NCBI GenBank assembly: GCA_030524805.1
Contig: JAUNFY010000023.1
Location: 1-35,855 of the forward strand
Reading direction: 5' to 3'
Length of the DNA: 35,855 nt
From: Bacteroidales bacterium
Lineage (GTDB): Bacteria; Bacteroidota; Bacteroidia; Bacteroidales; Muribaculaceae
Position numbers and translations under genes: made by a program. The first letter of the stretch is position 1, and each line of letters opens with the position of its first letter. The notes under the pieces are model-generated. The model saw only the letters and a list, made by a program, of their open reading frames with translations. It did no database searches and had not been told where the DNA came from. Below are positions 5,388 through 22,937 of this stretch, one piece after another.

Positions 5388-5418
5388 TTTCAAGTTGTGA
5401 AAAAAATTACTAAATTTG
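5388..5418 (+). promoter_or_regulatory. Promoter of the fimbrial locus (DUF3575 gene)
   Basis: TAAATTTG at 5411-5418 is a perfect TAnnTTTG -7 element. At the right distance (19 bp) the -33 site reads TTTC (5388-5391) rather than TTTG, a weak match. The leader to the ATG at 5487 would be about 60 nt. Confidence 0.5.
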
Positions 5419-6124: not shown

Positions 6125-7669
6125 ATGAAAAAATTCAACAACATAATAAGGATGAATCTCCGGTCGGCCTGCCTGTCGGCGGCTCTTATCGCCATGGCCT
6201 CCGCCTCCCTGCCGGCTGCGGCCGCGGGAATAGAGGGGGGCATCAAGACCTCGGCCTGCAAGGTGACGCACAGCGGCGACCAGCTGATAGTGAGCGCCGA
6301 CTTCATGCTCGACAGCCTCAGGCTCGGAGCCAACCATCAGATATACATCACCCCCGTGCTTGCCGACGACCACGGCCACAGCATCGCGCTCCCCGCAGTG
6401 CTGCTGAGCGGCCGCAACATGCACTACGCCATAGAGCGCAAGACCATCAAGGCCGAGGATGCCAACCATCCGCGCGTGGCTCAGGAAGTGCGCCGCAACA
6501 ACGGCCGGCCGCAGACTGTAGCCTACCTCGCGCAGGTGCCTTTCGAGCGCTGGATGCTCGACCGCACGGCGGAGGTGTCGTTCCCGCTCGACGAGTGCGG
6601 ATGCGGCGCCCCGCAGGGCAAAGGCCTGCTTCCCGGAATGCCGCTGGCGCTCAATCCGGCCGGCGACATGATTGTGGCATACATCACTCCGCAGGTGACC
6701 GAGCTCCCCGTGGCCATCCACGACGGCAAGGCCCGCATTCAGTTTGAGGTGGACCGCACAGAGCTGCATCCCGAACCCTACCGCTGCAAAAACGGCCAGC
6801 GCATCGACAACCGCGCCGAGCTCAAGGTGATAGGCGACTCGCTGCAGTATGCCCTTTCCGACCCCAACGTGGAGATAGCCGAACTCAACATCTGCGGCTA
6901 CGCCTCGCCCGAATCGCCCTACCTCCACAACGAGGAGCTGGCCACCGGCCGCTCGCGGGCCCTCTCGGAATACATCGCCGACCGCTACAACCTCCCCGCC
7001 GGAGTGAGCCACTACAGCTCGGTGCCGGAAAACTGGGAGGAATTCCGACAGCTCGTGGTTGAGGCTGACGACATCACCGAGCAGCAGCGCAGCGACCTGC
7101 TCGACCTTATCGACGCCCCTGCCTACGGCGCCGCCGACTACGACCGCAAGGAAAAAGCGCTGAAGACCGAACCCCGGTTTGCGCAACTTTACAAAACCAA
7201 GATACTTCCCGAATGGTTCCCGAAGCTTCGTGCCACAAAATTTGCCATCAAGACGCGTCTGAAGCCGATGAGCGATCAGAAACTCGCCGAGGTGATACTC
7301 ACCTCGCCCGAGAAGATGAGCCTCAATCAGATGTTTCGCGTGGCAAACCTCTATCCGGAGGGTAGCGACGACTTCAACCGCACCATCGGCATCGCGCTCC
7401 GATACTATGCCGACGACCCGGTGGCCAACCTCAACGCCGCTGTAGCGGCGCTCCGCGAGGCCAACGAGCCCGACGTGGAGCAGGCGCGTGAGGAACAGCT
7501 GCTTGCCGAGGCCGAGCGTTATCTCGCCAAGGCCGGCGACACCCCCGAGGCGGAAAATGCCCGCGGACTCCTCGCTGCAAAGCGGGGCGACCTCGACGCT
7601 GCCCGCAGCCACTTCATGAGCGCCGGCTCCCTCCCCGAAGCCATGCGCAACCTCCAGCTCCTCCGATAA
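6125..7669 (+). CDS. DUF3868 protein with OmpA-like domain, fimbrial locus
   Basis: A 514-residue exported protein. Signal peptide about residues 1-34 (ends SLPAAAA). Residues about 40-180 match the DUF3868 region (beta-rich, with DSLRLGANHQIYITPVL and SGRNMHYAIERK). Around residues 230-300 there is an OmpA-like segment: ELNICGYASPES followed by NEELATGRSRALSEYI, the NxxLSxxRAxxVxxYL peptidoglycan-binding signature. The C-terminal 90 residues are Ala/Glu-rich helices resembling a TPR (NARGLLAAKRGDLDAARSHF). In Bacteroidales the DUF3575-DUF3868 pair precedes Mfa1/Mfa2 genes, and a role in tethering the fimbrial base to cell wall and outer membrane is plausible but inferred. High GC throughout, in contrast with the next gene. 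Followed by an unusually long 347-bp gap. Confidence 0.85.
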   Translation: MKKFNNIIRMNLRSACLSAALIAMASASLPAAAAGIEGGIKTSACKVTHSGDQLIVSADFMLDSLRLGANHQIYITPVLADDHGHSIALPAVLLSGRNMHYAIERKTIKAEDANHPRVAQEVRRNNGRPQTVAYLAQVPFERWMLDRTAEVSFPLDECGCGAPQGKGLLPGMPLALNPAGDMIVAYITPQVTELPVAIHDGKARIQFEVDRTELHPEPYRCKNGQRIDNRAELKVIGDSLQYALSDPNVEIAELNICGYASPESPYLHNEELATGRSRALSEYIADRYNLPAGVSHYSSVPENWEEFRQLVVEADDITEQQRSDLLDLIDAPAYGAADYDRKEKALKTEPRFAQLYKTKILPEWFPKLRATKFAIKTRLKPMSDQKLAEVILTSPEKMSLNQMFRVANLYPEGSDDFNRTIGIALRYYADDPVANLNAAVAALREANEPDVEQAREEQLLAEAERYLAKAGDTPEAENARGLLAAKRGDLDAARSHFMSAGSLPEAMRNLQLLR

Positions 7670-8016: not shown

Positions 8017-9885
8017 ATGAAAACGTTTTCTAAATTTCTGACGTTTGGAGCGATGGCAGCCCTGATGTCGGCATGCTCCAACGACAACGTCCCCGACGCA
8101 CCCGGAGCCCAGAATCCTACAACCGACGGCGGTTATCTCGCAGTCAACATCCAGTTACCAATCGAGCCTTCTACCCGAGCCGCCAACGATGTTTTCGATG
8201 ATGGCAAGGAATACGAGTATGCTGTAAACAACGCGGCTCTCGTATTGTTTCAAGGAGATTCCGAGGCTGAAGCATCATTCGTAGGAGCCTACGTCCTTGT
8301 AAAGGATGCGAAGGATGAAGATAGTGATAAGAATGACAATATCACTGTCTCTCATCAAATGGTTGCTAAAATCAGCAACTCAATCACTGGCAATGGTAGC
8401 CTATACGCATTAGCGTTGGTGAACTATAATAATGATATCGCAACAATCGGAACTGATGGTACTCTGACAATAGGTGGCTCAGCGTTTACTGGTACTTTCA
8501 AGGATCTTCTTTGGAAAACGAGCAGTGACTCATTCTACTCAGCGACAACCACATCAAACTTTTTCATGACAAATGCTCCGTTGTGTACGGCTATTGGTGG
8601 TCCCGAAGCTACTTCTGCCGAAAATCTCAAATATGAAAATGTGTTCACTCTTGCTCCTTTCGAAAAAGACAAGATTAAGCCAACCAGAAATGAGGCAATA
8701 GATGAACCCGCTGCCAACATATATGTAGAACGTGCGGTTGCAAAAGTCACAATGAATTGGAGTCTTCTTGAAGGTAAAGAAAAATTTGAACTTGATGAAC
8801 GTGATGGCGTGACAGCTGAACTCGTTGGGTGGACTGTCAACAATACAGAATCATCATCGTATATCGTGCGCAACTTAGGCTTGGTCGCAGGCTCTACTGA
8901 AAATGCATTGGATAATGATTATCTTGCTTATACAAGTTCCAAACTTAAAGACACCAATTATCGCTTTGTAGGTCATTCAAAGATGGGTTCCACTGCAACC
9001 CTGCATCCTAATAAAAAGGATAATCTGTATCGTACTTATTGGTGTGTAGACCCCCATTATTCTACAGCATTGGCTCAGTCTGCTGAAGTAAATACCATCC
9101 CGGCTTCCGATTGGGTTGGTGTTGACCAGGCATTTTATCCGCATGAGAACACATTCAGTGTTGCTAATCAGAACTTCAAGAACACAACGCGTGCGCTTCT
9201 CAAGGTAAAGATCAATGTAGATGGTGCAGGAACCAATGGCACATTCTACATGATGAATGATAAAATATATGCCAATATGGAAAAGATCGAGTCTTTTGCA
9301 TTGGAAGATATTACAACGAATCCGGGTCTTCTTCTTGCCATTGAAAAAGCCTTGAAAGCAGAAAGTGAGACTTCCAATTCTTGGGAATATAAAAAAGGAG
9401 ACTTCGAACTCAAGTATACCACAGAAAATGGTAAGAAGACACTTACGGATGTGAAATTTGCCGGTCAGTTATCTGGAAAGAACATTGAATTCGATTTCAG
9501 TGACATTATAGATAACATCAATTACGCTTACGAAATTTTAGAATACACCGGAGGTATCTGCTACTATGACCTGAAGATCATGCACTTCGCAAGCAATAGC
9601 CCGGATGCTGACCTCGCTCCCTGGACTGCATCTGAAACAGAAAGTGAGACTACTACTGAGGCTGCCTATGAAAACAATAGCGCTGATTATCTCGGCCGTT
9701 ACGGTATGGTCCGCAACAACTGGTATGACATCAACGTGACCGGTGTTGCTGATATCGGTTCTCCCGTAGTGCCTGACGCCTTTGTCGAGACTTCCGACGA
9801 CAACAATGAAGTGGAACGCTACATTGCTTTCAGGATACATATCCTTTCTTGGGCTAAGCGTACAAACGATTACGTCCTGAAGTAA
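8017..9885 (+). CDS. Mfa1-family major fimbrial subunit (lipoprotein precursor)
   Basis: A 622-residue precursor. The signal MKTFSKFLTFGAMAALMSAC gives a lipidated Cys20; a mature N-terminus may follow Arg54 in PSTRAANDVF, where P. gingivalis Mfa1/FimA are cut by an Arg-specific protease before polymerising by donor-strand exchange. The N-terminal domain (YLAVNIQLP ... NNAALVLFQG ... VGAYVLVKD) and the C-terminal strands (YGMVRNNWYDINVTGVADIGSP, YIAFRIHILSWAKRTNDYVLK) are typical of Mfa1-type fimbrillins; the final strand would be the exchanged one. It follows a 347-bp structured leader and precedes the Mfa2-type gene. The interior (about 8200-9700) is much more AT-rich than the ends and the neighbouring genes, consistent with diversifying exchange of the exposed part. 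Somewhat longer than P. gingivalis Mfa1 (about 560 aa). Confidence 0.88.
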   Translation: MKTFSKFLTFGAMAALMSACSNDNVPDAPGAQNPTTDGGYLAVNIQLPIEPSTRAANDVFDDGKEYEYAVNNAALVLFQGDSEAEASFVGAYVLVKDAKDEDSDKNDNITVSHQMVAKISNSITGNGSLYALALVNYNNDIATIGTDGTLTIGGSAFTGTFKDLLWKTSSDSFYSATTTSNFFMTNAPLCTAIGGPEATSAENLKYENVFTLAPFEKDKIKPTRNEAIDEPAANIYVERAVAKVTMNWSLLEGKEKFELDERDGVTAELVGWTVNNTESSSYIVRNLGLVAGSTENALDNDYLAYTSSKLKDTNYRFVGHSKMGSTATLHPNKKDNLYRTYWCVDPHYSTALAQSAEVNTIPASDWVGVDQAFYPHENTFSVANQNFKNTTRALLKVKINVDGAGTNGTFYMMNDKIYANMEKIESFALEDITTNPGLLLAIEKALKAESETSNSWEYKKGDFELKYTTENGKKTLTDVKFAGQLSGKNIEFDFSDIIDNINYAYEILEYTGGICYYDLKIMHFASNSPDADLAPWTASETESETTTEAAYENNSADYLGRYGMVRNNWYDINVTGVADIGSPVVPDAFVETSDDNNEVERYIAFRIHILSWAKRTNDYVLK

Positions 9886-9983: not shown

Positions 9984-11189
9984 ATGCAAAAACCAATCAA
10001 ACTGCTGACTGCGCTGGCTATGCCGGCAATCCTCATGGCTTCGGCTTGCTCCGACATGCACGACGACCTCCCGGACTGCCCCTACGGCCTCTACGTCAGA
10101 TTCGCCTACGACTACAACACACACCGCGCAAACCTCATGCACGACCATGTGGGGCATCTGCGCCTGTATGTCTACGACGAATCGGGCAAGATGGTGGCGC
10201 AGCGACTTGTCAGCAATTCCTCCTCGCAATCTCCTCTCGCCGACCACGGCTTCCAGATATATTTCCCGAACGACGAACTCCCCGCAGGCCACAGCTACCG
10301 CCTGCAGGCAGTGGCGCTGCAACGCCACTGGGACGACGCCATCGCCGACAAGGGCGCCAAATACCGACTCTCGGAAATCTCCGACCCACAGTCGCTGATG
10401 GTGGCGCTCGACCATCAGGCCGCCAACGAACCGCTTGCATGCGGCCACCACATAGTAGACTATTCACAACCGCTCGACACTCTCTGGCACACCATGAAAG
10501 TGACGGCGACCGAGCCCCTCGCAGAGCGCTCCGACCCCGGACTGCACCCGACGAAGGCTCCCTACAGCATATATCCCATTGACGCGCAGATGGTGAAAGT
10601 GGAGAAAGACCGCTACACCTACGCCACCGTATCGCTGATGCGCGACACCAAGCATCTCGACATAACCCTGCGCCAGCTCAACGACCCGGCCGCCATTCAG
10701 GCCGACGACTACACGGTGGAGATAATAGACGACAACACGCTGCTCGACGGGCACAACGAGATCGTGGCCGACGGCACGGTCCACTACCGCCCCTACGCCG
10801 CGTGGACCTCGCGCTTCAACCAAGACGGCACGGTGAGCGTGGAGTCGGGCCTCACAACCCGCAGCGACGACGAGCCCCTGCAGCGCACGGCGCACTACAA
10901 CGTGATGTTCAACCGCACCATGATGCCCGCGGAGGCCGGCAACGGTGCGAAACTGCAGATTACGGAGAAAGCCACCGGACGCCCCGTGGCCGACATCTCG
11001 CTGCCCCACATCCTCTCGGAGGGAAGAAAGGCCTACGATATCTACCGCTACGGCGAGCAGGAATATCTCGACCGCGAATACGACTATCATCTCGACTTCA
11101 TTCTCCAGAACGGCGAGTGGAAATCGGTGTATATCAACGTACTTTCATGGTCGCACCGCATCGACAACGTAGTGCTCGGAGGTAAATAA
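9984..11189 (+). CDS. FimB/Mfa2-family fimbrial anchor lipoprotein
   Basis: A 401-residue lipoprotein with signal MQKPIKLLTALAMPAILMASAC (Cys22). Right after it comes the family mark DLPDCPYGLYVRFAYDYN, then HVGHLRLYVYDESGKMV and YRLQAVALQ, as in FimB/Mfa2 proteins, which stay lipid-anchored and fix the growing fimbria to the outer membrane and limit its length. The C-terminal half has a second beta domain (LDITLRQLND, YNVMFNRTMMP, ISLPHIL) and ends YINVLSWSHRIDNVVLGGK, similar to the end of the major subunit. No Arg cleavage site of the fimbrillin type stands in the usual position, in keeping with an uncleaved anchor. Same operon direction, 98 bp after the major subunit across a GC hairpin. 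GC-rich throughout. Confidence 0.88.
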   Translation: MQKPIKLLTALAMPAILMASACSDMHDDLPDCPYGLYVRFAYDYNTHRANLMHDHVGHLRLYVYDESGKMVAQRLVSNSSSQSPLADHGFQIYFPNDELPAGHSYRLQAVALQRHWDDAIADKGAKYRLSEISDPQSLMVALDHQAANEPLACGHHIVDYSQPLDTLWHTMKVTATEPLAERSDPGLHPTKAPYSIYPIDAQMVKVEKDRYTYATVSLMRDTKHLDITLRQLNDPAAIQADDYTVEIIDDNTLLDGHNEIVADGTVHYRPYAAWTSRFNQDGTVSVESGLTTRSDDEPLQRTAHYNVMFNRTMMPAEAGNGAKLQITEKATGRPVADISLPHILSEGRKAYDIYRYGEQEYLDREYDYHLDFILQNGEWKSVYINVLSWSHRIDNVVLGGK

Positions 11190-11229: not shown

Positions 11230-12966
11230 ATGAGCCGGTCAGCTTCACATATCATCCATTCGCTCGCAGCAGCCATTGCCGCGCTGCTGTTGGCGGCGTG
11301 CGCTGCCGACCGGTGCGACTGGGTCGACGCCGACAGCGATGAAGGTGCCACCTACCTCAGCCTGCGCGTCTTCGTCAGTGGCGACGGCGACGCTGCCGCC
11401 ACCCGTGCCGACGGGGCTCCAGAAGGACGGCTCCCCGGAAATGCTTACGAGAACGCCATCGACAATATCACTATTTTCTTTGCTGAATACAACGGCGAGG
11501 CAATTCCGGCAAATGGAACCGAGATTCAATTTGAAGACGACAACAAACTGTATATTGATTTCAAAAGCCCGAAATATAGAGTCTACTACAACGAAGACGG
11601 CAGCCGAACGGTGCTTATCCGTTTAGAAAATACGACAACTTTCGATAGTGGTGAATATTCGATGGTGGTTGTAGCCAATCTTGGCGATCTGCGAAAGGAT
11701 ATCAGCAATATTGACGACTTGCGGAAGAAATCGGCGGATTATGCCTGGATCAGCGATATCGACGGCATTCAGAAAACCGGCTTTGTGATGTCTTCGTTTG
11801 ATGACGCTAAAGGTGGCGTGATGTCAAAAGTAATTGGCTTCCCCGACCGCGACGGTTCCAAAGACAATCCCTATTACGGCGAATGCACCTTGATGCGCCT
11901 CGCAAGCCGCATCGACCTTTGCTGCTCTCAATCGACCGGAGACTATGGTAAATACACTCCGGCTGCCGATGGTAAAGACAACAGCGTGGTCTATGAAGTT
12001 GTAAACGAATCGGACGTAGAGCCTTCCGGAACTGTCTATCTTCTTGCTGCCGAGATGGTAAACTCACTCTCCAAGCCATCCTACATACTTCGGCACACCT
12101 ACCTGAGCAGCGACATAGATAAACTGACCGACGAGCAGATGCCTCTCGGCCTTACCTGCGGCGGCCTGATGGAGGTGGCCAATAAGGAGGAATTGAATTA
12201 TGTGATTGACCCTAACTTTTTGGAAAAGAACCAGACAACCACCGAAGCTACACTTAATGATTTCTTCGGAAGCACACGTCCCGAAGCCATCAAGAACGAT
12301 GTCCAGACCGATGATGTAAACCGTTTTAAGGGCAATTCGCTGATAGATAAATTTATAAAGGGTGACCTTAGCGGCGAATCATACGATGGGAAAACCTTCG
12401 ACCGCTCGCTCACCATCGGTTATGTCAACGAAAACCTTTTCAAGGCCGGGCTGAGCGCTGATAAGTTCGCTACCGGGCTATGTTTCAAGGCGGTGTTTGT
12501 GCCTTCTGTTGTGTATAAGGAGGTGCCGGGGAATGACGAAACTGACGAGGCATCGCTTGCCGAGAAAAAGGATACGGATTATGCCTACGGCGATGATTTC
12601 TGGCATGTGCATGTAGACACGGATAATGGGGAAGACGACGTTTATTTCTCCAATGAGACGGCGGCTCGTGAATATATGGGTGCGCATTCGGGAACACAGG
12701 TAACGATGACGCATCACCCCGGGGGCGTGAGCTACTATCACATCTGGATACGACATTCAAAAGTCGATGCCGAAGACGAAAGGCATGCGATGTATTATGG
12801 CATTGTCCGCAACAATATCTACCGCGTGCTGCTCACGTTCAAAGGACCCGGTTTTAACCAGCCCTTCGAGTCGGAGATACCCAAAGACGTGGTGTGGAAG
12901 ATCTACACCCGCGGATGGAACCTGCGCGAATGGAACATGGTGGAAGTGCCCGATGTGCAATTATAA
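11230..12966 (+). CDS. Fimbrillin-like lipoprotein, probable accessory or tip subunit 1
   Basis: A 578-residue lipoprotein (signal ends ALLLAAC, Cys24). The start of the mature part (ATYLSLRVFVSGDGDAAATRADG) resembles fimbrillin N-domains, with a possible Arg cleavage site in AATRADGAPEG near residue 60. NAIDNITIFFAEYNG and YSMVVVANLGDL match the first beta domain of Mfa-like proteins. The C-terminus (MYYGIVRNNIYRVLLTFKGPG ... DVVWKIYTRGWNLREWNMVEVPDVQL) is the fimbrillin pattern RNN.Y...V. It follows the anchor gene by 40 nt and is itself followed 38 nt later by another fimbrillin-like gene, the positions of mfa3 and mfa4 in P. gingivalis. An accessory/tip role is inferred from that order. 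The middle is less GC-rich than the ends. Confidence 0.78.
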   Translation: MSRSASHIIHSLAAAIAALLLAACAADRCDWVDADSDEGATYLSLRVFVSGDGDAAATRADGAPEGRLPGNAYENAIDNITIFFAEYNGEAIPANGTEIQFEDDNKLYIDFKSPKYRVYYNEDGSRTVLIRLENTTTFDSGEYSMVVVANLGDLRKDISNIDDLRKKSADYAWISDIDGIQKTGFVMSSFDDAKGGVMSKVIGFPDRDGSKDNPYYGECTLMRLASRIDLCCSQSTGDYGKYTPAADGKDNSVVYEVVNESDVEPSGTVYLLAAEMVNSLSKPSYILRHTYLSSDIDKLTDEQMPLGLTCGGLMEVANKEELNYVIDPNFLEKNQTTTEATLNDFFGSTRPEAIKNDVQTDDVNRFKGNSLIDKFIKGDLSGESYDGKTFDRSLTIGYVNENLFKAGLSADKFATGLCFKAVFVPSVVYKEVPGNDETDEASLAEKKDTDYAYGDDFWHVHVDTDNGEDDVYFSNETAAREYMGAHSGTQVTMTHHPGGVSYYHIWIRHSKVDAEDERHAMYYGIVRNNIYRVLLTFKGPGFNQPFESEIPKDVVWKIYTRGWNLREWNMVEVPDVQL

Positions 12967-13004: not shown

Positions 13005-14408
13005 ATGAAGAAGATGAGATTCAAGATATTCAAATATGTTTTTTCGCTGGCGTTTTCGCTGCTGATGCTCGCTGCCGCGGGTTGCACGTCGGCCGATGAC
13101 CCGACGCTGCCCGACGCCGCCCCCGGCACATTCCGAATCCGCAGCCGCGCCACAGCGCAAAGCCTCGGCACCCGCGCCATCCTCGATCCCGACCCGCTCC
13201 ATGACTCGGAAAACATCAACTCCTGGATAGTGGTTTTCTACAAGCATAGCGACTCTAATCCGGATGTCGGCGTAATTGAGGCGATTTGCCGAAGCGAAGC
13301 CGGGGCTACGGCGGGCACGGAATTCAGTTTCACTCCCGAAATTACGGACGGTACCTACGACATCGCCGCTTTCGCAAATATAAAGGAACAAGACTTGATA
13401 GATGCCGGCATATTGACAGAGAATCCCGTGAATCTTGAAGCTATAAGAGATAAGGAGCTGAATCTCACAAATTGTCCGGGCGAACCGGGTATATACGAAG
13501 TGCCGATGTCGGGCTATCGCGAGGATGTGAAGATTGTGAACAAGGCCGAGAGTGGCACGAAATACAACGGCAAGACTGAAGTGATCGAAGTAATCCGCCT
13601 CTACGCCAAAGTGGAGATACAACTGCAGAATAATTCTGAAGAATCTCTCACCATCGACAATGTAGACTTCGGATATGTCAACGTGGGCAATGTGCCTCTC
13701 TTTCCTGATTACAATAATCTTGGCAAAGATGGTGCGGCTTCGGAAAAAGCTCCCGACATATTGCAGGGCCATCCCGGCGGCATGGTGGCGGACGGCGATA
13801 AACAGAATATTGACGGATTGTTTAAAAGCGTTACCCTCGCTGAGGATAAAGCGGAAAAGGCTGTCTTTTACGTGCGCGAATCCGTTGCCTCAACGTTGAC
13901 TGCCAACGGTCGCTTCTACGTTAAGCTGACATTCACCCGCGATGGCAAGGAGCCGGAACACCACTACGCCGACCTTGCCGACGGGTTAGGATGGATCACG
14001 CGCAACGACCATGTGATTATCAGTGTTCCCATCAGCGACATCACCATCGACTGGGAAGTGATAGCTTATCCTCCCATCGGCGGATACCCCGCAGTGATTG
14101 ATGATGACAACACCCTCACCTACACCTTCAACACTCCCGGCAAATTCGCCATCCGCCCGATAGTGAAATATCAGGGGCAGGTGTTGACCTCCGAAAATAT
14201 GAATATGACAGCGACTCCCGACGGTGACGATATTTTCAAAGACGGCCCTGACTTCAAATATGGCGAGTTAGTGGGCGAGATAGGCTCCACCATAGGGAAG
14301 GCCACCCTGAATTGCACCCTGAAAGTGAAAACCGATAGGGGCGAGGAAGAGAGAACGCAGCAGCTCACCCTCATCCGCGCCCAAAAGGAATCCGATACTA
14401 CACCATAA
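13005..14408 (+). CDS. Fimbrillin-like lipoprotein, probable accessory or tip subunit 2
   Basis: A 467-residue lipoprotein. Signal MKKMRFKIFKYVFSLAFSLL ... AAAGC, Cys27. The mature N-terminus (GTFRIRSRATAQSLGTRAILDPDPLHDSENINSWIVVFYKHS) carries a possible Arg site (LGTR-AILD) like that of fimbrillins. YDIAAFANIKEQDL and EVIRLYAKVEIQLQNNSEESLTIDNVDFGYVNVGNVPLFPDYN are typical of Mfa-like proteins. FYVKLTFTRDGK ... LGWITRNDHVIISVPISDITIDWEV closes the second fimbrillin-type domain, and an extra C-terminal Ig-like beta domain of about 110 residues follows (PPIGGYPAVIDDDNTLTYTFNTPGKF onward). That extra domain is unusual for a polymerising subunit and suits a terminal or adaptor subunit that contacts the giant protein encoded next; this is inference. 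Confidence 0.75.
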   Translation: MKKMRFKIFKYVFSLAFSLLMLAAAGCTSADDPTLPDAAPGTFRIRSRATAQSLGTRAILDPDPLHDSENINSWIVVFYKHSDSNPDVGVIEAICRSEAGATAGTEFSFTPEITDGTYDIAAFANIKEQDLIDAGILTENPVNLEAIRDKELNLTNCPGEPGIYEVPMSGYREDVKIVNKAESGTKYNGKTEVIEVIRLYAKVEIQLQNNSEESLTIDNVDFGYVNVGNVPLFPDYNNLGKDGAASEKAPDILQGHPGGMVADGDKQNIDGLFKSVTLAEDKAEKAVFYVRESVASTLTANGRFYVKLTFTRDGKEPEHHYADLADGLGWITRNDHVIISVPISDITIDWEVIAYPPIGGYPAVIDDDNTLTYTFNTPGKFAIRPIVKYQGQVLTSENMNMTATPDGDDIFKDGPDFKYGELVGEIGSTIGKATLNCTLKVKTDRGEEERTQQLTLIRAQKESDTTP

Positions 14409-14420
14409 CCCCGTCATGGA

Positions 14421-14515
14421 GACCTTAAAGGCCTTAAAGACGTAGTCCGAAGCAACCTCGGTACTCCGAAGCAATGCCGGTATCTCGACGGCTTCCCAGC
14501 CGTCGTCCGAAGCAA
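14421..14515 (+). repeat. Structured repeat leader before the giant gene
   Basis: TCCGAAGCAA occurs at 14446-14455, 14465-14474 and 14506-14515, followed by decayed AGCAA units up to the start codon. CCTTAAAGAC at 14432-14441 is shared with the leader at 7915-7924. Between the second and third copies lies a hairpin, CGACGGCT (14486-14493), loop TCCC, AGCCGTCG (14498-14505), with no T-run. The gap is 155 bp and contains no gene. Confidence 0.6.
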
Positions 14516-14563: not shown

Positions 14564-17500
14564 ATGAAAGCAAGCCAATATATCCATTCTCTACTCATCC
14601 TTCTGACACTCCTCCTGAGCGCATCCTCGCAAGCACAGGAAACCGCCGATCAGGACCCCGACCCCACCCCCCGCCGCAAATGGCTCGTCACCCGCCACGC
14701 CCAGCTGACGACAAACGGTGGCACTTGGGCCGGAACCGCTTCTGATGTGAACCTGATCGGTCTCTGCGATGGCGACCCTGTAAAAGACGATGTCATTACC
14801 GAGGAAGAACAGAACATGGGCGGCGATGTGCTTCACCCGTGGCATTCGGTAGATAATGGAGGTGATGATGAAGATGGTTATAACTACATAGATATCGAAC
14901 TCGAAAAACCACTCGAACTCGCACCGGGCGATTCCCTCGTGTTCTACACCAAGCGTCACACTCTCAACGGTAAGGAGCATCCGCTTGCCTTTGAGGTTAT
15001 GGCGAGTGCCGACGGAAAAGACTTCATTCACTATGCCCGTATCTACTTCATGTATCGTGGAGGTCTGAGTGCGGGTGACCCGGAACCTGACGCAAGCGAA
15101 TCCGCCACGAACGGCACCAAAGAATACAGCGCACGCGTAGGTTTTGAAAAAGCGATCGAAGCCCTTAAAGACAAAGGAGGCCTGAAGTATATCAGGCTTT
15201 ACGTGATGACCAATAACACCAAGACCCGTGTGCCCAATACAAGCCACCGCACGGCCCGCCTCGCCTCGCTCAACGTGATGCAGATTCCCGCCGGCGAGAA
15301 CTATTCAGATATACTTATCGGCCGTTTTCGCCTCGTGACCGACTATAGTTACAAATACGCCAAACATGAGTTTGTGCCGACGCTCGGTGTCTTTGAGCCA
15401 CGCAACCGTTATCAGAACATCAACGGCAAGGAGTATAACCCCCAGTTGAAAGACTATGCAGTGTTCCCGGGTGAAGGGGATTCACCTTGGGTTCCGGCAA
15501 CAGAAGGGGAAGGCTATGTGTGGGGCCAGGATCAGGAGTATCTTAAATATGTAGGTGTCGAGATGCCGACCTACATCAAGCAGACCCACAGTCAGGATCC
15601 CAATATAGCCACCACGCCCAATGTGCCCGGCACCGAGACCGAAAACTGGCGTCAGCCTACCAATACAACGGAGCATATTGTCTACGCCATGCCCGGCGAC
15701 ATAGTTCCGCTGTATCCTTTCTATGGTATGGCCGAACTTGAAAAATCCCGCTATAATATCAAATTCGCCCATTGGTATAATTACCGCACCGGGGGCGGAA
15801 GCCCTTACCTTGACTTCTTGAGCAATCCGGATATCGTATGCAAATCAGATAAATATGGCTATTATGTTGGTCCCGAAATCAGCTACTTCACGAAGTATGA
15901 CCCTGATGACGTCACCACTTCTAATCCCTCAAACGAAGTGTTGATCGCTTCGGTGGATGAGTATATAAAGTTTGTAGAAAGTGTCTATGATGAAGACAAG
16001 GTATGGAGCGTGAAATTGACCGAGAATCTTGATTTTAGTGAAAAAACAGATATAAAATCGATTGGTGATATAAATAAAAAATTCAAAGGTGTGTTCGATG
16101 GACAAGGACACACTATAAGTAACCTTAAAATAACCGACAGTTCTTCACTATATGTCGGCATGTTCGGAGCTTTGGATGGTGCTGCTGTAGTAAAAAATCT
16201 TGTTGTTGACGAAACATGCGAATTCAAGGGAAACAGAGACCAAGGAGAGTGTAATGTTGGACTTATTGGCTATGCACAATCGGCTACGGTATCGAATATT
16301 ATTTGCAAGGCGACATTGACAACTGATAATACCAACGTAAATGTAGCTCATAATATTGGAGGTATTATAGCAAAAGCAGACAACGTAACAATTAAGGATT
16401 GTGCTTTTACCGGAAGAGTATATGGTAACAAGCAATGGTCTCAATGGGCTTTTATGGGCGGACTCGCTGCCAAGATTATCGGTCCGGATGAGAATGCTTC
16501 CGGTATATCAACTATTAGTAATTGCTTTGTGAATGCCGATATACACTATGATTATACTGTAAAAACTTCTGAGTGGAATGGTTCCCAAATGGTAGAAAAA
16601 GTAGAGGAGTTTACAGAGACTCCAAGTCCTTATATCTTTAGTTTGTCAGCGAATACAACTGTCAATATATCGAATGTCTATTCCAATGAAGTTGGTGATT
16701 GGGAAAAATCACATGATGTGCTGAAAATATATAAGGAAGATGAAGGCGAGCCGGAATATTATGTGCTTAAGAGCGAACTTTCCGAACCGTCCGAATCATG
16801 GCCGGATAAGATTGATATCAATTCAGAAGATTTCGCGGAAGTCCTTGGTGCTGATGAATGGTTGTATAATTTAGAGAAAGGTCTGGTGCCCTTTGTCAAG
16901 ACAATCAAGCAACAAACTCCTGTCGATCCGGATCCGTCGGTAAATAAGGATCCGGATGAGGTGAAAGGCCTTGAAGATCTGTTGAAAAAAATATACGACG
17001 AAAATGAAGTGCCTGCCGGTGCCAATCTGCAGGATCATCAATATAAGCGTCCTGCTGTCTATGCCGGTATATCGCCTTTTGACGACAATGGCAACATAAA
17101 GAGTACAGCCTATGAAACTCATCATCATAAGGCCGGCGCGGCTGCTACATTCTTCTGTCCGCGTCATACCGATGTGAAGGGTGTGAAACTTGATCTCCCG
17201 AAGGATCCTGATTCTCCTGATGCTGCAGACGAGGATTTTCTCATTGCCGCAGACTTGAGCACATTCTTCACTAATCATCGGGATGTGAATGTGGCGGAGT
17301 CGGAGATATACGAGCCGGTAGTGCTTTTCCGTCATATTTTCCGAATCAAGGACGGCAAGACATTTGCAGAGGAGTTTTCCGGTAGTCCGGCTGCCAATAA
17401 GGCATACGTAGACAAGCACCGCAAAATCATGTCGGCTTCGTACACGGGTGGTGCGTCAGGAGAGGGGTATGGCACGTATGCCTTCCAGATCCGTCTTGAT

Positions 17501-20500
17501 GAACCTGCGCCGATAAAAGAAGAAGGCAAATTTGCCCCTCCCTCAAATTTGTACTATAAAATATCAGATACCGACTACCGTCGCGTCAGGGCTTTTGAAG
17601 CAAAAATTTTTGAACTTGATGGCAATGGAGATGAAACAGAGACAACCGCAATCAACGTTTCCTTTGCGCAGTCGTCCTCAAATTCAGGCTCTAAGGATGC
17701 CCTTATGTTTTATGGCGAAGGATCACGCATGATAGAAAACACTATCTACCGCACGGCAGGTGGTGAAGGCCTTTACAGCCGTATGGTGCGTCTCACATGG
17801 GGTAACTCGGAAGACGTAAAAGGCAAGAAATTCCGTGTCCGTCTTTATGCGAAGGATATCAACGACGACAAAATCGTGATATACACAGGGGGTGCGGACG
17901 ACTTGCTCGTGGTGCAGGAATACGACATCACATTTATTGAGGCTAAGTTCAAAACTCTTGATGATGCGCTGGCTATTGAAGAAGATGAGCAAGGTGTCGT
18001 AAAATTCAAGGATGATGTGGAAGCCAAGTATGGCAAACCGGTGGCACAGATTAACTTCGACCAATATGCGAGTCTTGTTCAAGACCGTGAGTCTCTCCTG
18101 GGAGTGGCAGACCCGAAACTCTATTTCAATTCAAAAGATGAAACAGACAGGGGCGATGGAAAAGTTTATTTCAAATGGCCTGCGAGCTGGCGTAAATCCA
18201 CTTACGGGTTCGGATATACCAATAAAATGCACGACGGCAATACTCCTTCGTCGAGGGGCAATCTTGAGTATAACTATGATATTTATGTGGTCGCTTCGCA
18301 TTCTTCGCAGACTCCGTGGCATAATTCTGCACAGGATTTATACGATGTGTCATATTACCGTCAGGTTAAAAAAGGAAATACCGACCCTCGCAAAGGATTC
18401 TTCTTCTGGATGAACTCCGCCTCCGACCCATGTGTGGCAGCCAACCTTGAACTCGGTCAACTTTGTGTCGGTTCGTCGATTCATGTTTCTGCATATATGG
18501 CTGAGTTTTCGGGTGGCGGTGAGAACGGTAACCTGTCGTTCAACTTCATGGCAGTTGACCAATCAGGCAACAAGACTCTCATACACACCTACAACACAGG
18601 TTATCTTCCGGAGCGTATAGGTGAATGGTATAACATCCAGTATGATTTCATGCCTGACTATGAACGCATCGATATGATTGACAATATCGACCACTTCGAA
18701 CTTCAGTTGGAAAACAACTGTAAGAATTCCGAGCAGGCCGACTACGCCATCGACGACATCCAGCTGTTCGTGGTCGCTCCCGAAGTGGAAGCGAAGATGA
18801 TGAATGTGGTCTGTGACGACACAGATGTTTCGACCGACCTGAAGATTTCGCTCACATACGAGGATTTCCTCGCTGCCAACGGTCTTAAGGCTGCGACGGA
18901 CAAGGAGTCCGCTCAGACGGTCAACGTGTATTACTCATTCTTCCATAAGGATATTTTCGATAAGTTCCACTCCAACAATCAGGAAGCATACGATGCCGCT
19001 GTGCTGAATTATGATTATGACCTTAATGGCGAGATAAATAAGACATACGGAAAATTGCAGTTCTCCACTTATTTCCAAGAGAATTTGCCTGAAAACCCTG
19101 TGCTCTCCGACCCCGACGCAAGCAAAGGAGAGAATAAGGTCGATACAGGAGTGCCATATTATGAAATTCGCGACGGCAGGAAATATGTGGTGATATTTCT
19201 CTCTCCGGAAGGTGAAGAGGAAAATAATTTCGTGCCGGGTCAGGAATACTATATCGGTCTGAATGTAACTGAATTAGATAAAGACCCGATAGCCGGAGAC
19301 CTTACCCGCTTCGAACTGCTCGACGGCTGCTCCAGCAAGGGCTCGTTCAAGATAGAGGCTGCCAACAACGTGAAGATAGATCCCGAGGAAAGCGGTGCGT
19401 ACAAACCGACGGACGGCGCGTATTGCGTCGGTTCCTCCCCGACAGTGAAGATCGATATCAATGCCATCACCGGCAATGATAAAATAGACCTCAACAAGGA
19501 TGGGCAGTCGAATGCTTCGATCGACTGGTATGCCGGTTCCGTAGAGGAGTTCAACAAAGAGAAGATGCCCGACGGCACGGAACTACTCAGCGAAGTGCTT
19601 GCAAGATTCCGCGAAGCATATCCTGACATGTCTAAACCAGCGGATGTAGAACCTAATGCCGTTTTCACCGAGGCCATGAAGAACTATCTCGTGACTTTGT
19701 CGAAGAAACGCCATATCGACGGCAGGCCGATGCTGACTTTCGCTACCGTTGACTATAAATACCATCCCGGCAAACTGATTGCCACTACTAAAGACTCAAT
19801 CAACTATGTCACCGCTATCCCGTACCTGATCAATAAAGCTGAGTATGGAGAAGAAAAGGGCTACACTTTCTGCGACGCCCCGATAGAGGTGCGGATAAAA
19901 GTCTCGTCCGATGGACCCTCGATGTTCCATGGTCTTGATATCGACTATCCTGATGAGATTATTGACGTGCCTATCCGTATCGGAATCAAGCAGATTGAGA
20001 AAGCTCGCGACAACGAGAATATGCTCCGGGTCCCGGTGCTGAAAGTCAACACTCCCTCGTTGTATGCAACCAAGCTAAAACTTAGGGAAATAACGGAACA
20101 GGACGGAGCTGATGTCCAGCTTCTCGAAAGCAATGACCCTGCATATTCAGGCAGGGTTGTGGATGAAACGGCCGAGGATGAAGATATGTTCCTCACTGTC
20201 GGCCACGTGGTGCATCTCGATGCGGAAGACACGGATGATAACACTAGAAATGATAAGAATGCCTTCTATGTGAAGTTTGACGAACCGCTGAATATCTTCT
20301 ATGATGAGAATGGCAACAAGCTTGAGGAGAAGAAGAAGTTTGAATTCCATGAGGGGTATTACTACACCATGAAGTTTGACTTTGAGCAGACTAATGATAC
20401 AGAAAACCTGAATGTCAATGACGCTTGTCCCGGGCAGCATATCTTCACTATCAAGGTGGTGCCGGAATATATGGTGTGGGTCGGCGATATGGTTAAGACG

Positions 20501-22432
20501 GCTGCCGCTGCCGAAGGAGAGTGGGAATGCAACCTGAACTGGAACAACGACAGCAACTGGCAACGTCTCAATGAGTCGACCATCGTTCCGGGTCTTGAAT
20601 ATACAGAGCCGGATGAATATACTGACTACGAGACGCAGAGATGGGCATACGCCCCGATGGATTTCACCAAAGTGGTGATTGGTTCGCAGAAGAATTTCCC
20701 GCGTATGTATCCCGTGGAGGATGTGAATGTGAATGGTTTTGACAATCCCGCCCACACATGGTCGAGCCTGAAAGACGTGGTTGATCTAAGCGGCATCGGC
20801 AAACCCACGCCCTTCATCCAGTATGACATGATGGCCTACGACACCGATCCTTCCGAATACGAGAAAGTTGCTGTGGCGTGCCGTCCGTGGTATGCCAACA
20901 CGGCGAAGGAAATCAATTTCCGTCCGAATTCCGAGATCTTAGGTCAGCAGTATCTGCGCTATGAGAAGGCTTGGGTGGAGATGGAGATGAAACCGGATGG
21001 ATGGTACACAGCCGCCTCTCCGCTTCAGGGCGTCGTGGCCGGCGACATGTATCTGCCTACTAAGGGTGCTCGCCAGGAGAATCAGTTCTTTACTGAGATA
21101 AAATTCGATAACACTCTCGAAAAGAACGACCGTTTCCGCCCCGCCGTCTATCAGCGGTCGTGGAATCTGGCTTCTGATATGATCTATGAGTGGGGTGGCA
21201 CTGAAAGAGATGGTTTCGTAGCACTCAACTGGAGTAATGTCTACAATGATGTGAAGGTGGCTTACAAGGCAGCCGAAGGTTTCTCTATCCGCACCGATGT
21301 GTCGGAAGCTGAAAAAGTGGATAACAAAGCCATCGACAAAGTGCTCTTCCGCTTCCCGAAAGAAGACACAGCATATACTTATTACAACTATGAGGGGAAG
21401 GAGAATGGTCTCACTCAAACCGTGACGCGCGAGAATCCCGGTCGCCTCAATCCAACCCATGGCACCGTGACGATAGCCGCCAACGAGTCAAGCCTCTTCT
21501 TCCTCGTCGGCAATCCCTTTATGGCGCATCTTGACATCCGCAAATTCCTTGAGAAAAACAGTGAGAAGGTGGAGCAGACGTATTGGATTCTCAACAGCAC
21601 GGAGCAGACGTCGGTAGTGTTGAGCGAAGGCATAGCCATTACAAATAAAGGCGAACACGACGCGTCGACCTTGCTTCCGCCGTTGGCAGGCTTCATGGTG
21701 AAGTCAAACGTAAAGGATCCGATCAAAGAACTGACTCTCGAATATGATGAGAGCATGATGCAGGTGGTGGATGCAGTCGCAGATGCCCCCGGTTGGCTTA
21801 AAGCTCCTGCCACCCGCAGCGCGGCTCCCGAAGGCATGATGCTCATAACGGCCTCCACTGCCGCCGGTCGCCCCACCACGGCATTGCTTTCCGACGGCTC
21901 GTCGCTGCTTGATGCCAACGCCGACCTTGTGGTGGATCCGGAACTCAACGTGCCGGCGACGGTCTACACCGTAGCCGACGGTCGCGCGATGTCAATCAAT
22001 GCAGCTGCCGACATGCACTGCACCGAATTGGGCGTGGTGGGCTCGGCCGACGACGACATAACCCTCCGCTTCGAAGGCCCGCTCTGCGACGACGGTTATT
22101 ATCTCAACGACCGCCGGCGCGGTTGCAGCACACCGCTGAGGCAAGGGCTGGAATACAAGGTGAAGGGGCAGACGCTCGGCGCGCTCTACATCTCCGACCA
22201 GCCTCTCTCCGACGTCAGGGCCGGCCTGTCGATTACCGCGGTAGGCGGTGAGGTGGTGGTGACATCAGGCGACGGCAGCGCGCTCAACGTGCGATTCTGC
22301 AACACCGCGGGCGTGGTGCTGAAGGAGGTGCGCGACAGCGATGAGCCGGTGAGATACCGTCCGGAGAAGGGCGTGCTGATAGTGGAAGCCGCCGACGGCG
22401 CCGACACGCTGACCAAGACCCTCATTTTCTAA
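14564..22432 (+). CDS. Giant secreted surface protein (2622 aa) with GLUG repeats and T9SS-like C-terminus
   Basis: Signal peptide MKASQYIHSLLILLTLLLSASSQAQ, non-lipidated. Regions seen: about 90-230, a discoidin-like beta domain (PGDSLVFYTKRHTL ... GLKYIRLYVMTNN); about 500-650, GLUG-type repeats (FKGVFDGQGHTISNLKITD, GLIGYAQSATVSN, GGIIAKADNVTIKDCAFTG); about 790-810, an acidic Pro/Asp linker; about 1275-1405, a MAM/galactose-binding-like domain (GFFFWMNSASDPC ... YAIDDIQLFVV); about 1990, WECNLNWNNDSNW; about 2314, LVGNPFMAHLDIRKFLEKN, close to a motif common in T9SS-exported proteins. The last 70 residues (SITAVGGEVVVTSGDG to TLTKTLIF) resemble a T9SS sorting domain. It follows two accessory fimbrillins, where P. 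gingivalis has the VWA-bearing Mfa5, but no VWA/MIDAS motif is visible. A fimbria-associated adhesin is the best guess. The GLUG stretch is markedly AT-richer than the rest. Confidence 0.75.
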   Translation: MKASQYIHSLLILLTLLLSASSQAQETADQDPDPTPRRKWLVTRHAQLTTNGGTWAGTASDVNLIGLCDGDPVKDDVITEEEQNMGGDVLHPWHSVDNGGDDEDGYNYIDIELEKPLELAPGDSLVFYTKRHTLNGKEHPLAFEVMASADGKDFIHYARIYFMYRGGLSAGDPEPDASESATNGTKEYSARVGFEKAIEALKDKGGLKYIRLYVMTNNTKTRVPNTSHRTARLASLNVMQIPAGENYSDILIGRFRLVTDYSYKYAKHEFVPTLGVFEPRNRYQNINGKEYNPQLKDYAVFPGEGDSPWVPATEGEGYVWGQDQEYLKYVGVEMPTYIKQTHSQDPNIATTPNVPGTETENWRQPTNTTEHIVYAMPGDIVPLYPFYGMAELEKSRYNIKFAHWYNYRTGGGSPYLDFLSNPDIVCKSDKYGYYVGPEISYFTKYDPDDVTTSNPSNEVLIASVDEYIKFVESVYDEDKVWSVKLTENLDFSEKTDIKSIGDINKKFKGVFDGQGHTISNLKITDSSSLYVGMFGALDGAAVVKNLVVDETCEFKGNRDQGECNVGLIGYAQSATVSNIICKATLTTDNTNVNVAHNIGGIIAKADNVTIKDCAFTGRVYGNKQWSQWAFMGGLAAKIIGPDENASGISTISNCFVNADIHYDYTVKTSEWNGSQMVEKVEEFTETPSPYIFSLSANTTVNISNVYSNEVGDWEKSHDVLKIYKEDEGEPEYYVLKSELSEPSESWPDKIDINSEDFAEVLGADEWLYNLEKGLVPFVKTIKQQTPVDPDPSVNKDPDEVKGLEDLLKKIYDENEVPAGANLQDHQYKRPAVYAGISPFDDNGNIKSTAYETHHHKAGAAATFFCPRHTDVKGVKLDLPKDPDSPDAADEDFLIAADLSTFFTNHRDVNVAESEIYEPVVLFRHIFRIKDGKTFAEEFSGSPAANKAYVDKHRKIMSASYTGGASGEGYGTYAFQIRLDEPAPIKEEGKFAPPSNLYYKISDTDYRRVRAFEAKIFELDGNGDETETTAINVSFAQSSSNSGSKDALMFYGEGSRMIENTIYRTAGGEGLYSRMVRLTWGNSEDVKGKKFRVRLYAKDINDDKIVIYTGGADDLLVVQEYDITFIEAKFKTLDDALAIEEDEQGVVKFKDDVEAKYGKPVAQINFDQYASLVQDRESLLGVADPKLYFNSKDETDRGDGKVYFKWPASWRKSTYGFGYTNKMHDGNTPSSRGNLEYNYDIYVVASHSSQTPWHNSAQDLYDVSYYRQVKKGNTDPRKGFFFWMNSASDPCVAANLELGQLCVGSSIHVSAYMAEFSGGGENGNLSFNFMAVDQSGNKTLIHTYNTGYLPERIGEWYNIQYDFMPDYERIDMIDNIDHFELQLENNCKNSEQADYAIDDIQLFVVAPEVEAKMMNVVCDDTDVSTDLKISLTYEDFLAANGLKAATDKESAQTVNVYYSFFHKDIFDKFHSNNQEAYDAAVLNYDYDLNGEINKTYGKLQFSTYFQENLPENPVLSDPDASKGENKVDTGVPYYEIRDGRKYVVIFLSPEGEEENNFVPGQEYYIGLNVTELDKDPIAGDLTRFELLDGCSSKGSFKIEAANNVKIDPEESGAYKPTDGAYCVGSSPTVKIDINAITGNDKIDLNKDGQSNASIDWYAGSVEEFNKEKMPDGTELLSEVLARFREAYPDMSKPADVEPNAVFTEAMKNYLVTLSKKRHIDGRPMLTFATVDYKYHPGKLIATTKDSINYVTAIPYLINKAEYGEEKGYTFCDAPIEVRIKVSSDGPSMFHGLDIDYPDEIIDVPIRIGIKQIEKARDNENMLRVPVLKVNTPSLYATKLKLREITEQDGADVQLLESNDPAYSGRVVDETAEDEDMFLTVGHVVHLDAEDTDDNTRNDKNAFYVKFDEPLNIFYDENGNKLEEKKKFEFHEGYYYTMKFDFEQTNDTENLNVNDACPGQHIFTIKVVPEYMVWVGDMVKTAAAAEGEWECNLNWNNDSNWQRLNESTIVPGLEYTEPDEYTDYETQRWAYAPMDFTKVVIGSQKNFPRMYPVEDVNVNGFDNPAHTWSSLKDVVDLSGIGKPTPFIQYDMMAYDTDPSEYEKVAVACRPWYANTAKEINFRPNSEILGQQYLRYEKAWVEMEMKPDGWYTAASPLQGVVAGDMYLPTKGARQENQFFTEIKFDNTLEKNDRFRPAVYQRSWNLASDMIYEWGGTERDGFVALNWSNVYNDVKVAYKAAEGFSIRTDVSEAEKVDNKAIDKVLFRFPKEDTAYTYYNYEGKENGLTQTVTRENPGRLNPTHGTVTIAANESSLFFLVGNPFMAHLDIRKFLEKNSEKVEQTYWILNSTEQTSVVLSEGIAITNKGEHDASTLLPPLAGFMVKSNVKDPIKELTLEYDESMMQVVDAVADAPGWLKAPATRSAAPEGMMLITASTAAGRPTTALLSDGSSLLDANADLVVDPELNVPATVYTVADGRAMSINAAADMHCTELGVVGSADDDITLRFEGPLCDDGYYLNDRRRGCSTPLRQGLEYKVKGQTLGALYISDQPLSDVRAGLSITAVGGEVVVTSGDGSALNVRFCNTAGVVLKEVRDSDEPVRYRPEKGVLIVEAADGADTLTKTLIF

Positions 22433-22457: not shown

Positions 22458-22871
22458 ATGAAAAAGTACCTGATAAGGCATATTGCCCTCTTGTTGTGTA
22501 TGATAGCAGCGCTTCTTCGCCCCGGTGTGTGCCGGGGTGGGGAACCGCTGACCGAAGGGCCGTGTCTGGTGGTGATGGACAAGGAACTTGACCTCGGTAA
22601 GTTCAGCGCCACAACGGAGCGCTACGGGCAGATCCGCGTGCGCAATGCGGGCGACAGTCCGGTGGTGATAAAGAGCGTGAGGGGTAATTGCGGATGCACG
22701 GTGGTGAAGTTTGAGCACGACAGCATCATGCCCGACAGCGTGGCCACCATCAACATCCGCTTCAACGGACGCAACCGGGTGGAAGGCCCCTTCCGAAAGA
22801 TGATAAAGATCCGCTCCAACTCGCCGCATAAGATAGACATAGCCTACGTGGTCGGTACTATTGTCAGATAG
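22458..22871 (+). CDS. DUF1573 domain small exported protein
   Basis: A 137-residue protein with an N-terminal hydrophobic signal (residues 6-22, with GVCRGGEP after it) and a single DUF1573 domain at about 38-134: LDLGKFSATTERYGQIRVRNAGDSPVVIKSV, the invariant-looking NCGCTVVKF, DSIMPDSVATINIRFNGRNRVEGPFRKMIKIRSN. DUF1573 folds as an Ig-like (ASH/MSP-type) beta sandwich; its role is unknown, though it is very common in Bacteroidetes envelope proteins. It starts 25 nt after the giant gene and has no promoter of its own that I can see, so it is probably the last gene of the fimbrial operon and might assist the giant protein. No clear terminator follows. Confidence 0.85.
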   Translation: MKKYLIRHIALLLCMIAALLRPGVCRGGEPLTEGPCLVVMDKELDLGKFSATTERYGQIRVRNAGDSPVVIKSVRGNCGCTVVKFEHDSIMPDSVATINIRFNGRNRVEGPFRKMIKIRSNSPHKIDIAYVVGTIVR

Positions 22872-22929: not shown

Positions 22930-22937
22930 TAACTTTG
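22930..22937 (+). promoter_or_regulatory. Candidate -7 element for the lyase-like gene
   Basis: TAACTTTG matches TAnnTTTG and lies 28 nt before the ATG at 22966. TTTC at 22907-22910 sits at the -33 distance, a one-base mismatch to TTTG, the same variation as at the fimbrial-locus promoter. Confidence 0.55.

What the first reader, a model, noticed from the sequence alone, without database searches (positions are those of the whole stretch)
14564..22432. Giant T9SS-like surface protein encoded inside a Mfa-type fimbrial operon
Seen: 2622 residues, non-lipoprotein signal peptide, GLUG repeats, discoidin/MAM-like beta domains, a GNPF-type motif near 2314 and a C-terminal 70-residue sorting-like domain, placed directly after two accessory fimbrillins. 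Known: in P. gingivalis the last mfa gene encodes Mfa5, a VWA-bearing tip-associated protein. Inference: here a much larger, unrelated adhesin may occupy the fimbrial tip, with export by T9SS while the fimbrillins use the lipoprotein route. That would be a mixed-pathway fimbria with a new tip type.
Basis: partly seen in the sequence, partly recalled or inferred. Interest (0 to 1): 0.7.

Follow-up and report, generated by a model that had tools for sequence, protein, structure and literature searches.

The report
Giant secreted adhesin of Mfa-type fimbriae
A bacterial genome, probably of the Bacteroidales, encodes as the last large gene of a hair-like fimbria operon a 2622-residue protein that looks like an adhesin and very probably leaves the cell by another export route than the other fimbrial parts; the gene pair recurs in many relatives, but the mixed-route principle is already known from Porphyromonas gingivalis.

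Summary
ORF 14564-22432 (2622 aa) has a non-lipoprotein signal peptide, a CBM32/discoidin-like domain, a GLUG region, a conserved core with a GNPF module, and a type IX secretion (T9SS) sorting domain. It lies in a DUF3575-DUF3868-Mfa1-Mfa2-fimbrillin-fimbrillin-giant-DUF1573 gene row.

The sorting domain is real: 10 of 12 family tails match TIGR04183; the window's own does not, but scores well above 1000 shuffles with two models not trained on it. SprA/Sov and PorV are in the genome.

Linkage is strong: in 40 of 48 distinct core giants with upstream sequence the next gene upstream is the same fimbrillin family (FB; median gap 13 nt).

The novelty claim fails in one respect: P. gingivalis Mfa5, the known terminal mfa product, is itself T9SS cargo. 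The giant takes Mfa5's place, without VWA and with exchangeable N-terminal, carbohydrate-binding-like domains. Homology to the Mfa5 C-terminal half could not be tested.

In four Bacteroides-titled genomes without SprA, related GNPF proteins carry lipoboxes and (where the end can be judged) little or no sorting domain, so the export route may be exchangeable. Tip location, docking and adhesion are inferred.

The parts
5411..5418 (+). TAnnTTTG -7-like promoter box upstream of the operon (Bacteroidetes-type consensus, recalled)
   Evidence: no further + strand match before 22930. The motif is not above chance in the window (13 seen, mean 11 in shuffles).
5487..6083 (+). DUF3575 protein
   Evidence: Pfam PF12099 E 3.1e-65
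6125..7669 (+). DUF3868 protein
   Evidence: Pfam PF12984 E 2.5e-8
8017..9885 (+). Mfa1-family major fimbrillin
   Evidence: NCBIfam NF038041 182 bits (cut-off 130), Fimbrillin_C E 9.9e-23; lipobox-like N-terminus
9984..11189 (+). Mfa2-family anchor
   Evidence: Pfam PF08842 E 3e-36; lipobox-like N-terminus
11230..12966 (+). accessory fimbrillin FA
   Evidence: Fimbrillin_C E 1.3e-10; NF038041 123.6 bits, just under cut-off; family profile matches PDB 4jrf E 7.2e-6 and 9y6o E 2.2e-5
13005..14408 (+). accessory fimbrillin-like FB with a further C-terminal part; recurrent partner of the giant
   Evidence: Mfa2 E 6.2e-4 and NF038041 E 8.7e-6, both under cut-off; no PDB relative; directly upstream of 40 of 48 core giants
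14564..22432 (+). giant protein, 2622 aa
14564..14638 (+). signal peptide (residues 1-25), no lipobox
   Evidence: by eye; no signal-peptide program was at hand
14669..15295 (+). CBM32/discoidin-like domain (residues about 36-244)
   Evidence: profile hit to PDB 4lks; AlphaFold model partly confident there (blocks from 40 to 95)
15923..16465 (+). GLUG region, probable beta-helix (residues about 454-634)
   Evidence: profile hit to PDB 3n6z; regular strands, blocks at pLDDT 78-96
17132..22429 (+). conserved core (residues 857-2622)
18164..19003 (+). MAM/CBM-like block (residues 1201-1480)
   Evidence: block HMM hits in giants of other groups; name after Pfam hits in single family members
20804..22003 (+). 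GNPF module (residues 2081-2480)
   Evidence: contains the most conserved stretches; 31 of 393 genomes of the order at E<=1e-8
22205..22429 (+). T9SS C-terminal sorting domain (residues 2548-2622)
   Evidence: seven strands, blocks at pLDDT 67-90
22458..22871 (+). DUF1573 protein, 137 aa, directly downstream
   Evidence: Pfam PF07610 E 4.4e-19; directly downstream of 21 of 58 core giants
22930..22937 (+). TAnnTTTG box before the next gene (PcRGLX-like, 22966-26250); likely end of the operon

Best explanation
The giant is the terminal adhesin of a Mfa-type (type V) fimbria, in the position that Mfa5 takes in P. gingivalis. Proposed steps: Mfa1, Mfa2, FA and FB go out as lipoproteins and build shaft, anchor and adaptor. 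The giant enters the periplasm by Sec, is carried over the outer membrane by T9SS through its C-terminal domain, loses that domain, and docks from outside on FB. Its conserved core (857-2622) serves docking and stalk; its exchangeable N-terminal region (CBM32-like plus GLUG here; F5/8C, ricin-type or CBM4/9 matches elsewhere) binds glycans. Shown by sequence: gene row, partner linkage, signal peptide, sorting domain, two T9SS genes, variable N-terminus. Inferred: one transcript, actual export and cleavage, docking on FB, tip location, glycan binding.
For: FB directly upstream (<=700 nt) in 40 of 48 core giants with at least 1.2 kb upstream; gap 30 nt or less in 33 of the 41 whose nearest upstream hit is FB. 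In 150 genomes, own included, all 10 with a strong FB match (E<1e-30) also have a core giant. Lipobox rule: 0 of 48 giants, 43 of 45 FB-called genes, 25 of 29 FA, 18 of 25 Mfa2, 3 of 6 Mfa1. Sorting domain: 10 of 12 tails match TIGR04183; profile against ten tails of the own genome found with TIGR04183 97.8%; against the RgpB CTD E 3.5e-5; window tail alone 36.2 bits against a best of 14.3 for 1000 shuffles. SprA 2645 bits and PorV E 1.1e-67 in the genome. Carbohydrate-binding-like N-termini. Precedent: Mfa5 is T9SS cargo, and Mfa3 binds both Mfa1 and Mfa5 in vitro (passages).
Against: No experiment. The window's own tail misses every library threshold. 8 of 48 core giants lack FB directly upstream: 7 with no fimbrial gene found, 1 with FB 1586 nt away. 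The GNPF module occurs in many proteins outside fimbrial loci, so it is not a fimbria-specific docking domain. Three genomes with weak FB matches (G027, G068, G098; E 1e-13 to 1e-10) have no core giant. A looser lipobox pattern flagged 8 of 69 core giants. 4 of 68 core tails show no sorting domain. 7 of 44 genomes with giants or other non-lipoprotein GNPF proteins show no SprA: three are 53-69% complete, the other four are assemblies of uncultured bacteria of untold completeness. The profile also draws unrelated chains from E 4.7e-4. No usable model of the core or of a complex.
Confidence: 0.7

Rival explanations
1. The giant is an independent T9SS surface adhesin, held on the outer membrane or released, that is only co-transcribed with the fimbria.
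For: 7 of 48 core giants have no fimbrial gene found upstream, and many GNPF proteins with sorting domain stand apart from fimbrial genes. Group I T9SS cargo of P. gingivalis is attached to A-LPS (passage in PMC7712824).
Against: Recurrent direct linkage to one fimbrillin family with short gaps in genomes of several named groups; the same place as Mfa5, which is part of fimbriae.
Confidence: 0.2
2. The giant is a length regulator, cap or assembly factor rather than an adhesin.
For: Loss of Mfa5 is reported to reduce the total amount of fimbriae (passage in PMC5954841); the N-terminal domains have no measured ligand.
Against: N-terminal domains resemble glycan-binding modules and differ between relatives, as expected of a receptor-binding end.
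Confidence: 0.07
3. True homologue of Mfa5 (compatible with the best explanation, so odds do not add up): both descend from one terminal fimbrial protein with a shared C-terminal half and only the N-terminal part was exchanged.
For: Same gene position, same kind of export signal, the same pattern of conserved C-terminal part and variable N-terminus as described for Mfa5 genotypes.
Against: Not tested: Mfa5 C-terminal sequence not at hand. The solved N-terminal half of Mfa5 (6tnj, 6to1) was not among the PDB matches to giants. A published search found no mfa5 match in P. distasonis genomes (passage in PMC9409006), while one P. distasonis record holds GNPF fragments (L195).
Confidence: 0.35

Closest known systems
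Mfa5 of Porphyromonas gingivalis (PGN_0291)
   Same: Terminal gene of an mfa1-mfa2-mfa3-mfa4-mfa5 cluster; signal peptide and T9SS sorting domain; associated with fimbriae whose other subunits are lipoproteins (passages).
   Different: About half the size (1228 aa), VWA domain in genotypes A-C, transcribed apart from mfa1-4; the giant has CBM32-like and GLUG regions, no VWA found, no separate promoter box seen.
T9SS type A cargo (TIGR04183 / PF18962)
   Same: Sec signal peptide, C-terminal domain related to the RgpB CTD, T9SS genes in the genome.
   Different: The window's own sorting domain is divergent and below library cut-offs; cargo in fimbrial operons is known to me only as Mfa5 (recalled).
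FimD/FimE and other lipoprotein-route tip proteins of type V fimbriae
   Same: Accessory proteins encoded in the fimbrial cluster.
   Different: Those go out as lipoproteins (passages); the giant has no fimbrillin match and another signal. NF052322 (FimD) matches FA weakly (E 1.5e-13, under cut-off), not the giant.

Membership tests
T9SS cargo, type A | Sec signal peptide without lipobox | tested here: met
   by eye; 0 of 48 core giants by the rule (a looser rule flagged 8 of 69; the window not among them)
T9SS cargo, type A | C-terminal domain of the TIGR04183/Por_Secre_tail kind | tested here: met
   family: 10 of 12 tails TIGR04183, 9 of 12 Pfam, the window's own in neither; window tail 36.2 and 16.7 bits against best of 1000 shuffles 14.3 and 5.5
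T9SS cargo, type A | T9SS machinery in the same genome | tested here: met
   SprA/Sov and PorV found; other components not searched
T9SS cargo, type A | export and cleavage of the domain in fact | not testable with these tools
   needs protein work
Mfa-type (type V) fimbrial operon | Mfa1-family shaft and Mfa2 anchor genes | tested here: met
   NF038041 over cut-off; PF08842 E 3e-36
Mfa-type (type V) fimbrial operon | conserved linkage of the giant | tested here: met
   40 of 48; 10 of 10 genomes with a strong FB match have a core giant
Mfa5 | last large gene behind the accessory fimbrillins, with T9SS sorting domain | tested here: met
Mfa5 | VWA domain (genotypes A-C only) | tested here: not met
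   no VWA in 17 giants at E<=0.01
Mfa5 | sequence homology of the C-terminal half | not tested
   no Mfa5 C-terminal sequence found in reach
fimbrial tip protein | location at the fimbria tip | not testable with these tools
   inferred from Mfa5

The most novel reading that the evidence does not exclude
The fimbrial end-piece is a plug-in loaded from outside: a conserved core docks on a dedicated lipoprotein adaptor (FB), glycan-binding heads are exchanged, and the export route itself is exchangeable. Where T9SS is present the end-piece is T9SS cargo; in Bacteroides genomes without SprA a related GNPF protein, in two of four cases inside a fimbrial operon, is a lipoprotein.
Probability: 0.3. 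Interest if true: 0.65.

Novelty: new variant of a known kind. Interest (0 to 1): 0.5.

Why it matters
Mfa-like fimbrial genes and T9SS have both been reported for the Muribaculaceae (passage in PMC4936053), the group to which this window may belong, but I found no paper on which adhesin such fimbriae carry. A recurrent FB-giant pair gives testable candidates for what these fimbriae bind. It also suggests that P. gingivalis Mfa5 is one case of a wider design in which the end-piece takes another export route than the shaft, and that this route may be swapped.

Tried and rejected
Rejected: 'separate promoter': no TAnnTTTG on the + strand between 5418 and 22930 (the motif alone is no better than chance in the window). 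'No sorting domain', as direct library scans of the window protein suggest: overturned. 'The GNPF module marks fimbrial tips': rejected, many GNPF proteins stand outside fimbrial loci.

Led nowhere: first scan of genome contigs with the single protein. Mfa5 itself: I took the genus of G303 for Porphyromonas and so labelled L111-L113 in a notebook entry; one search shows a family of at least 22 genera, one very large, so that label is withdrawn and L111-L113 are unnamed Mfa loci with terminal genes of 1024-1099 aa. The model of residues 2057-2622 was poor apart from the sorting domain (mean pLDDT 52). Fold searches could not be run: machine busy, one library absent. The IQ-TREE run gave a tree without support values; FastTree supports were used.

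Caveats on counts: removal of repeats left 108 of 122 rows. The fimbrial HMMs were iterated on these same loci. The iterated sorting-domain model was trained on the tails it scores and hits 18 of 682 other ORF tails at E<1e-3, so I rely instead. The own-genome tails of A3 are 10: 8 of the 10 over the TIGR04183 cut-off (L038 and L040 left out) and 2 below it. That scan listed 23 places, 10 over the cut-off, but weak hits ring in 13 of 14 control genomes, over the cut-off in 1. The first gene-map script hid DUF3868 of the window behind an antisense frame, put right.

Full report
What is there. The frame 14564-22432 encodes one 2622-residue protein with a Sec-type signal peptide. It follows DUF3575, DUF3868, Mfa1-family, Mfa2-family and two further fimbrillin-type genes, and is followed by a small DUF1573 gene. 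A TAnnTTTG box stands before DUF3575 and the next one on the + strand before the gene at 22966; none lies between. This fits one transcript, although the motif count in the window is no higher than chance. Of ten further frames scanned on both sides, nine have Pfam matches, mostly of metabolic or household kinds.

Domains. Single-sequence scans say little: GLUG below threshold, nothing else. Family evidence says more. A 23-sequence profile of residues 25-720 matches 4lks (E 6.8e-7) and sialidase chains (about 0.005), which I recall as CBM32/F5-8C domains, and 3n6z (E 2.8e-11), which I take for a GLUG-type fold. The AlphaFold model of this region (mean pLDDT 71) is confident over the GLUG region and over parts of the first domain. 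Across 17 whole giants, E<=0.01, Pfam finds F5/8C in 2, fascin in 2, and ricin-B, CBM_4_9, MAM and others singly; the window's own protein has none. In N-terminal pieces of 10 giants: F5/8C in 3 (E 1.1e-8, 1.9e-5, 0.0075, the last two under the curated cut-off), CBM_4_9 in 1, ricin-B in 1, none or other in 5. The N-terminal part thus varies while the core from about residue 857 is better conserved.

Sorting domain. Of 12 family tails of 80 residues, the window's included, 10 match TIGR04183 and 9 Por_Secre_tail; the window's own matches neither. The profile matches ten tails of the own genome found with TIGR04183 (97.8%) and the RgpB CTD (E 3.5e-5; unrelated chains begin at 4.7e-4). With models not trained on it, the window tail scores 36.2 bits (11 other family tails) and 16.7 bits (own-genome tails) against bests of 14.3 and 5.5 for 1000 shuffles. 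The model of the tail shows seven strands, blocks at pLDDT 67-90. SprA/Sov and PorV are in the genome.

Linkage. In 150 genomes, own included, 41 have some match and 13 a long core match. Of the 12 core-giant loci fetched from other genomes, 9 have upstream sequence and all 9 show FB next to the giant. With 80 named loci from genome contigs and further regions, 108 distinct GNPF proteins were compared (122 rows before removal of repeats). Of 48 core giants with at least 1.2 kb upstream, 40 have FB directly upstream, 1 has it 1586 nt away and 7 have no fimbrial gene found. Of 28 proteins with the GNPF module alone, 3 have a fimbrial gene directly upstream and 11 one within 8 kb. The gap FB-giant has a median of 13 nt; 33 of 41 are 30 nt or less. 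Conversely, 13 of 150 genomes match FB at E<=1e-10; the 10 strong ones (E<1e-30) all have a core giant, the 3 weak ones have none; the 3 core-giant genomes without FB have the giant at a contig end. Lipobox by the rule: 0 of 48 giants, 43 of 45 FB-called genes, 25 of 29 FA, 18 of 25 Mfa2, 3 of 6 Mfa1, 0 of 3 DUF3868; a looser pattern flagged 8 of 69 core giants.

Origin. Contigs of the same length as those of the 12 core-giant relatives carry titles of Porphyromonadaceae (5), Muribaculaceae (3), Bacteroidales (2), Bacteroides sp. (1) and 'bacterium' (1). With the older habit of filing the Muribaculaceae under Porphyromonadaceae (recalled), the window is probably from the Muribaculaceae; this is inference.

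What is known. Passages in four papers state that Mfa5 of P. gingivalis, a tip-complex protein, goes out by T9SS with a C-terminal domain cleaved by PorU, while Mfa1, 3 and 4 are lipoproteins; Mfa3 binds both Mfa1 and Mfa5 in vitro; all Mfa5 genotypes share a C-terminal half but only A-C have VWA (PMC8313007, PMC7835359, PMC7712824, PMC5954841). A mixed-route fimbria is therefore known, and the giant is best seen as a large, VWA-less counterpart of Mfa5. T9SS and Mfa-like genes were reported for the Muribaculaceae (PMC4936053, passages), without a link between them in the passages seen. Searches showed no paper on such giants; beyond the papers named here I saw listings only, and passages of PMC10202324 and PMC9409006.

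A second export route. Five related GNPF proteins (L066, L191, L192, L206, L207) look like lipoproteins: four pass the lipobox rule, and in L192 the gene is split and the first piece begins with a lipobox-like N-terminus. Sorting domain: L191 and L192 none, L066 weak (E 0.7), L207 cut by the contig end, L206 E 7.7e-4 in a model I do not trust. Loss of the domain is not special to them: 4 of 68 core tails (L118, L152, L190, L196) and L070, L119, L159, L162 and a piece of L195 also score none, several being short or broken frames. The five do not form a clade of their own: they lie in a group of 8 with three proteins that have sorting domains (FastTree support 0.96), L191-L192 beside those three, L066-L206-L207 apart. 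The genomes of L191, L192, L206 and L207, titled Bacteroides, have no SprA (0 of 4); L066's genome has it and is an exception; of the other 44 genomes searched 37 have it, among them three titled Bacteroides sp. with core giants. L191 and L192 lie in DUF3575-lipoprotein-fimbrillin-like operons; no fimbrial gene was recognised around L206, and L207 is a short contig. This suggests, but does not prove, that the end-piece can change route with the host's secretion system.

Verdict. What is new is the recurrent FB-giant pair, its spread, its exchangeable carbohydrate-binding-like heads, and the hint of a swappable export route.

Noticed in passing
L191 7013-11362, L192 7092-11341, L206 6776-11281, L207 1263-3902, L066 6503-10321: GNPF proteins with lipobox-like N-termini and without a convincing sorting domain; four of the five genomes have no SprA. 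In L192 (Bacteroides faecichinchillae) the gene is split into two frames.
   Followed up: partly
window 22458-22871: DUF1573 (HYDIN-like Ig) gene directly behind the giant, as behind 21 of 58 core giants in all; possible accessory protein or chaperone.
   Followed up: partly
window 7783-7810: Inverted repeat (14-nt arms, 93% complementary) in the 347-nt gap between DUF3868 and Mfa1; possible processing site or attenuator.
   Followed up: no
window 14438-14515: Three imperfect copies of an 18-nt repeat ending in TCCGAAGCAA in the gap before the giant.
   Followed up: no
L209 2-11977: Two giants in tandem (the first, 1570 aa, cut by the contig end, then 2413 aa).
   Followed up: no
L195 10028-11514: Parabacteroides distasonis record with GNPF fragments in two neighbouring frames, apparently a broken copy.
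   Followed up: no
L111 8771-11845, L112 12524-15823: Other Mfa operons hold roughly 1000-aa proteins with DUF4906 matches (E 2.8e-8; E 0.041, under cut-off) behind the fimbrillins instead of a giant.
   Followed up: partly
window residues 1301, 1417, 1589, 1621, 1770, 1955 of the giant: Six cysteines invariant in an alignment of 17 giants; possible disulphides in the core.
   Followed up: no
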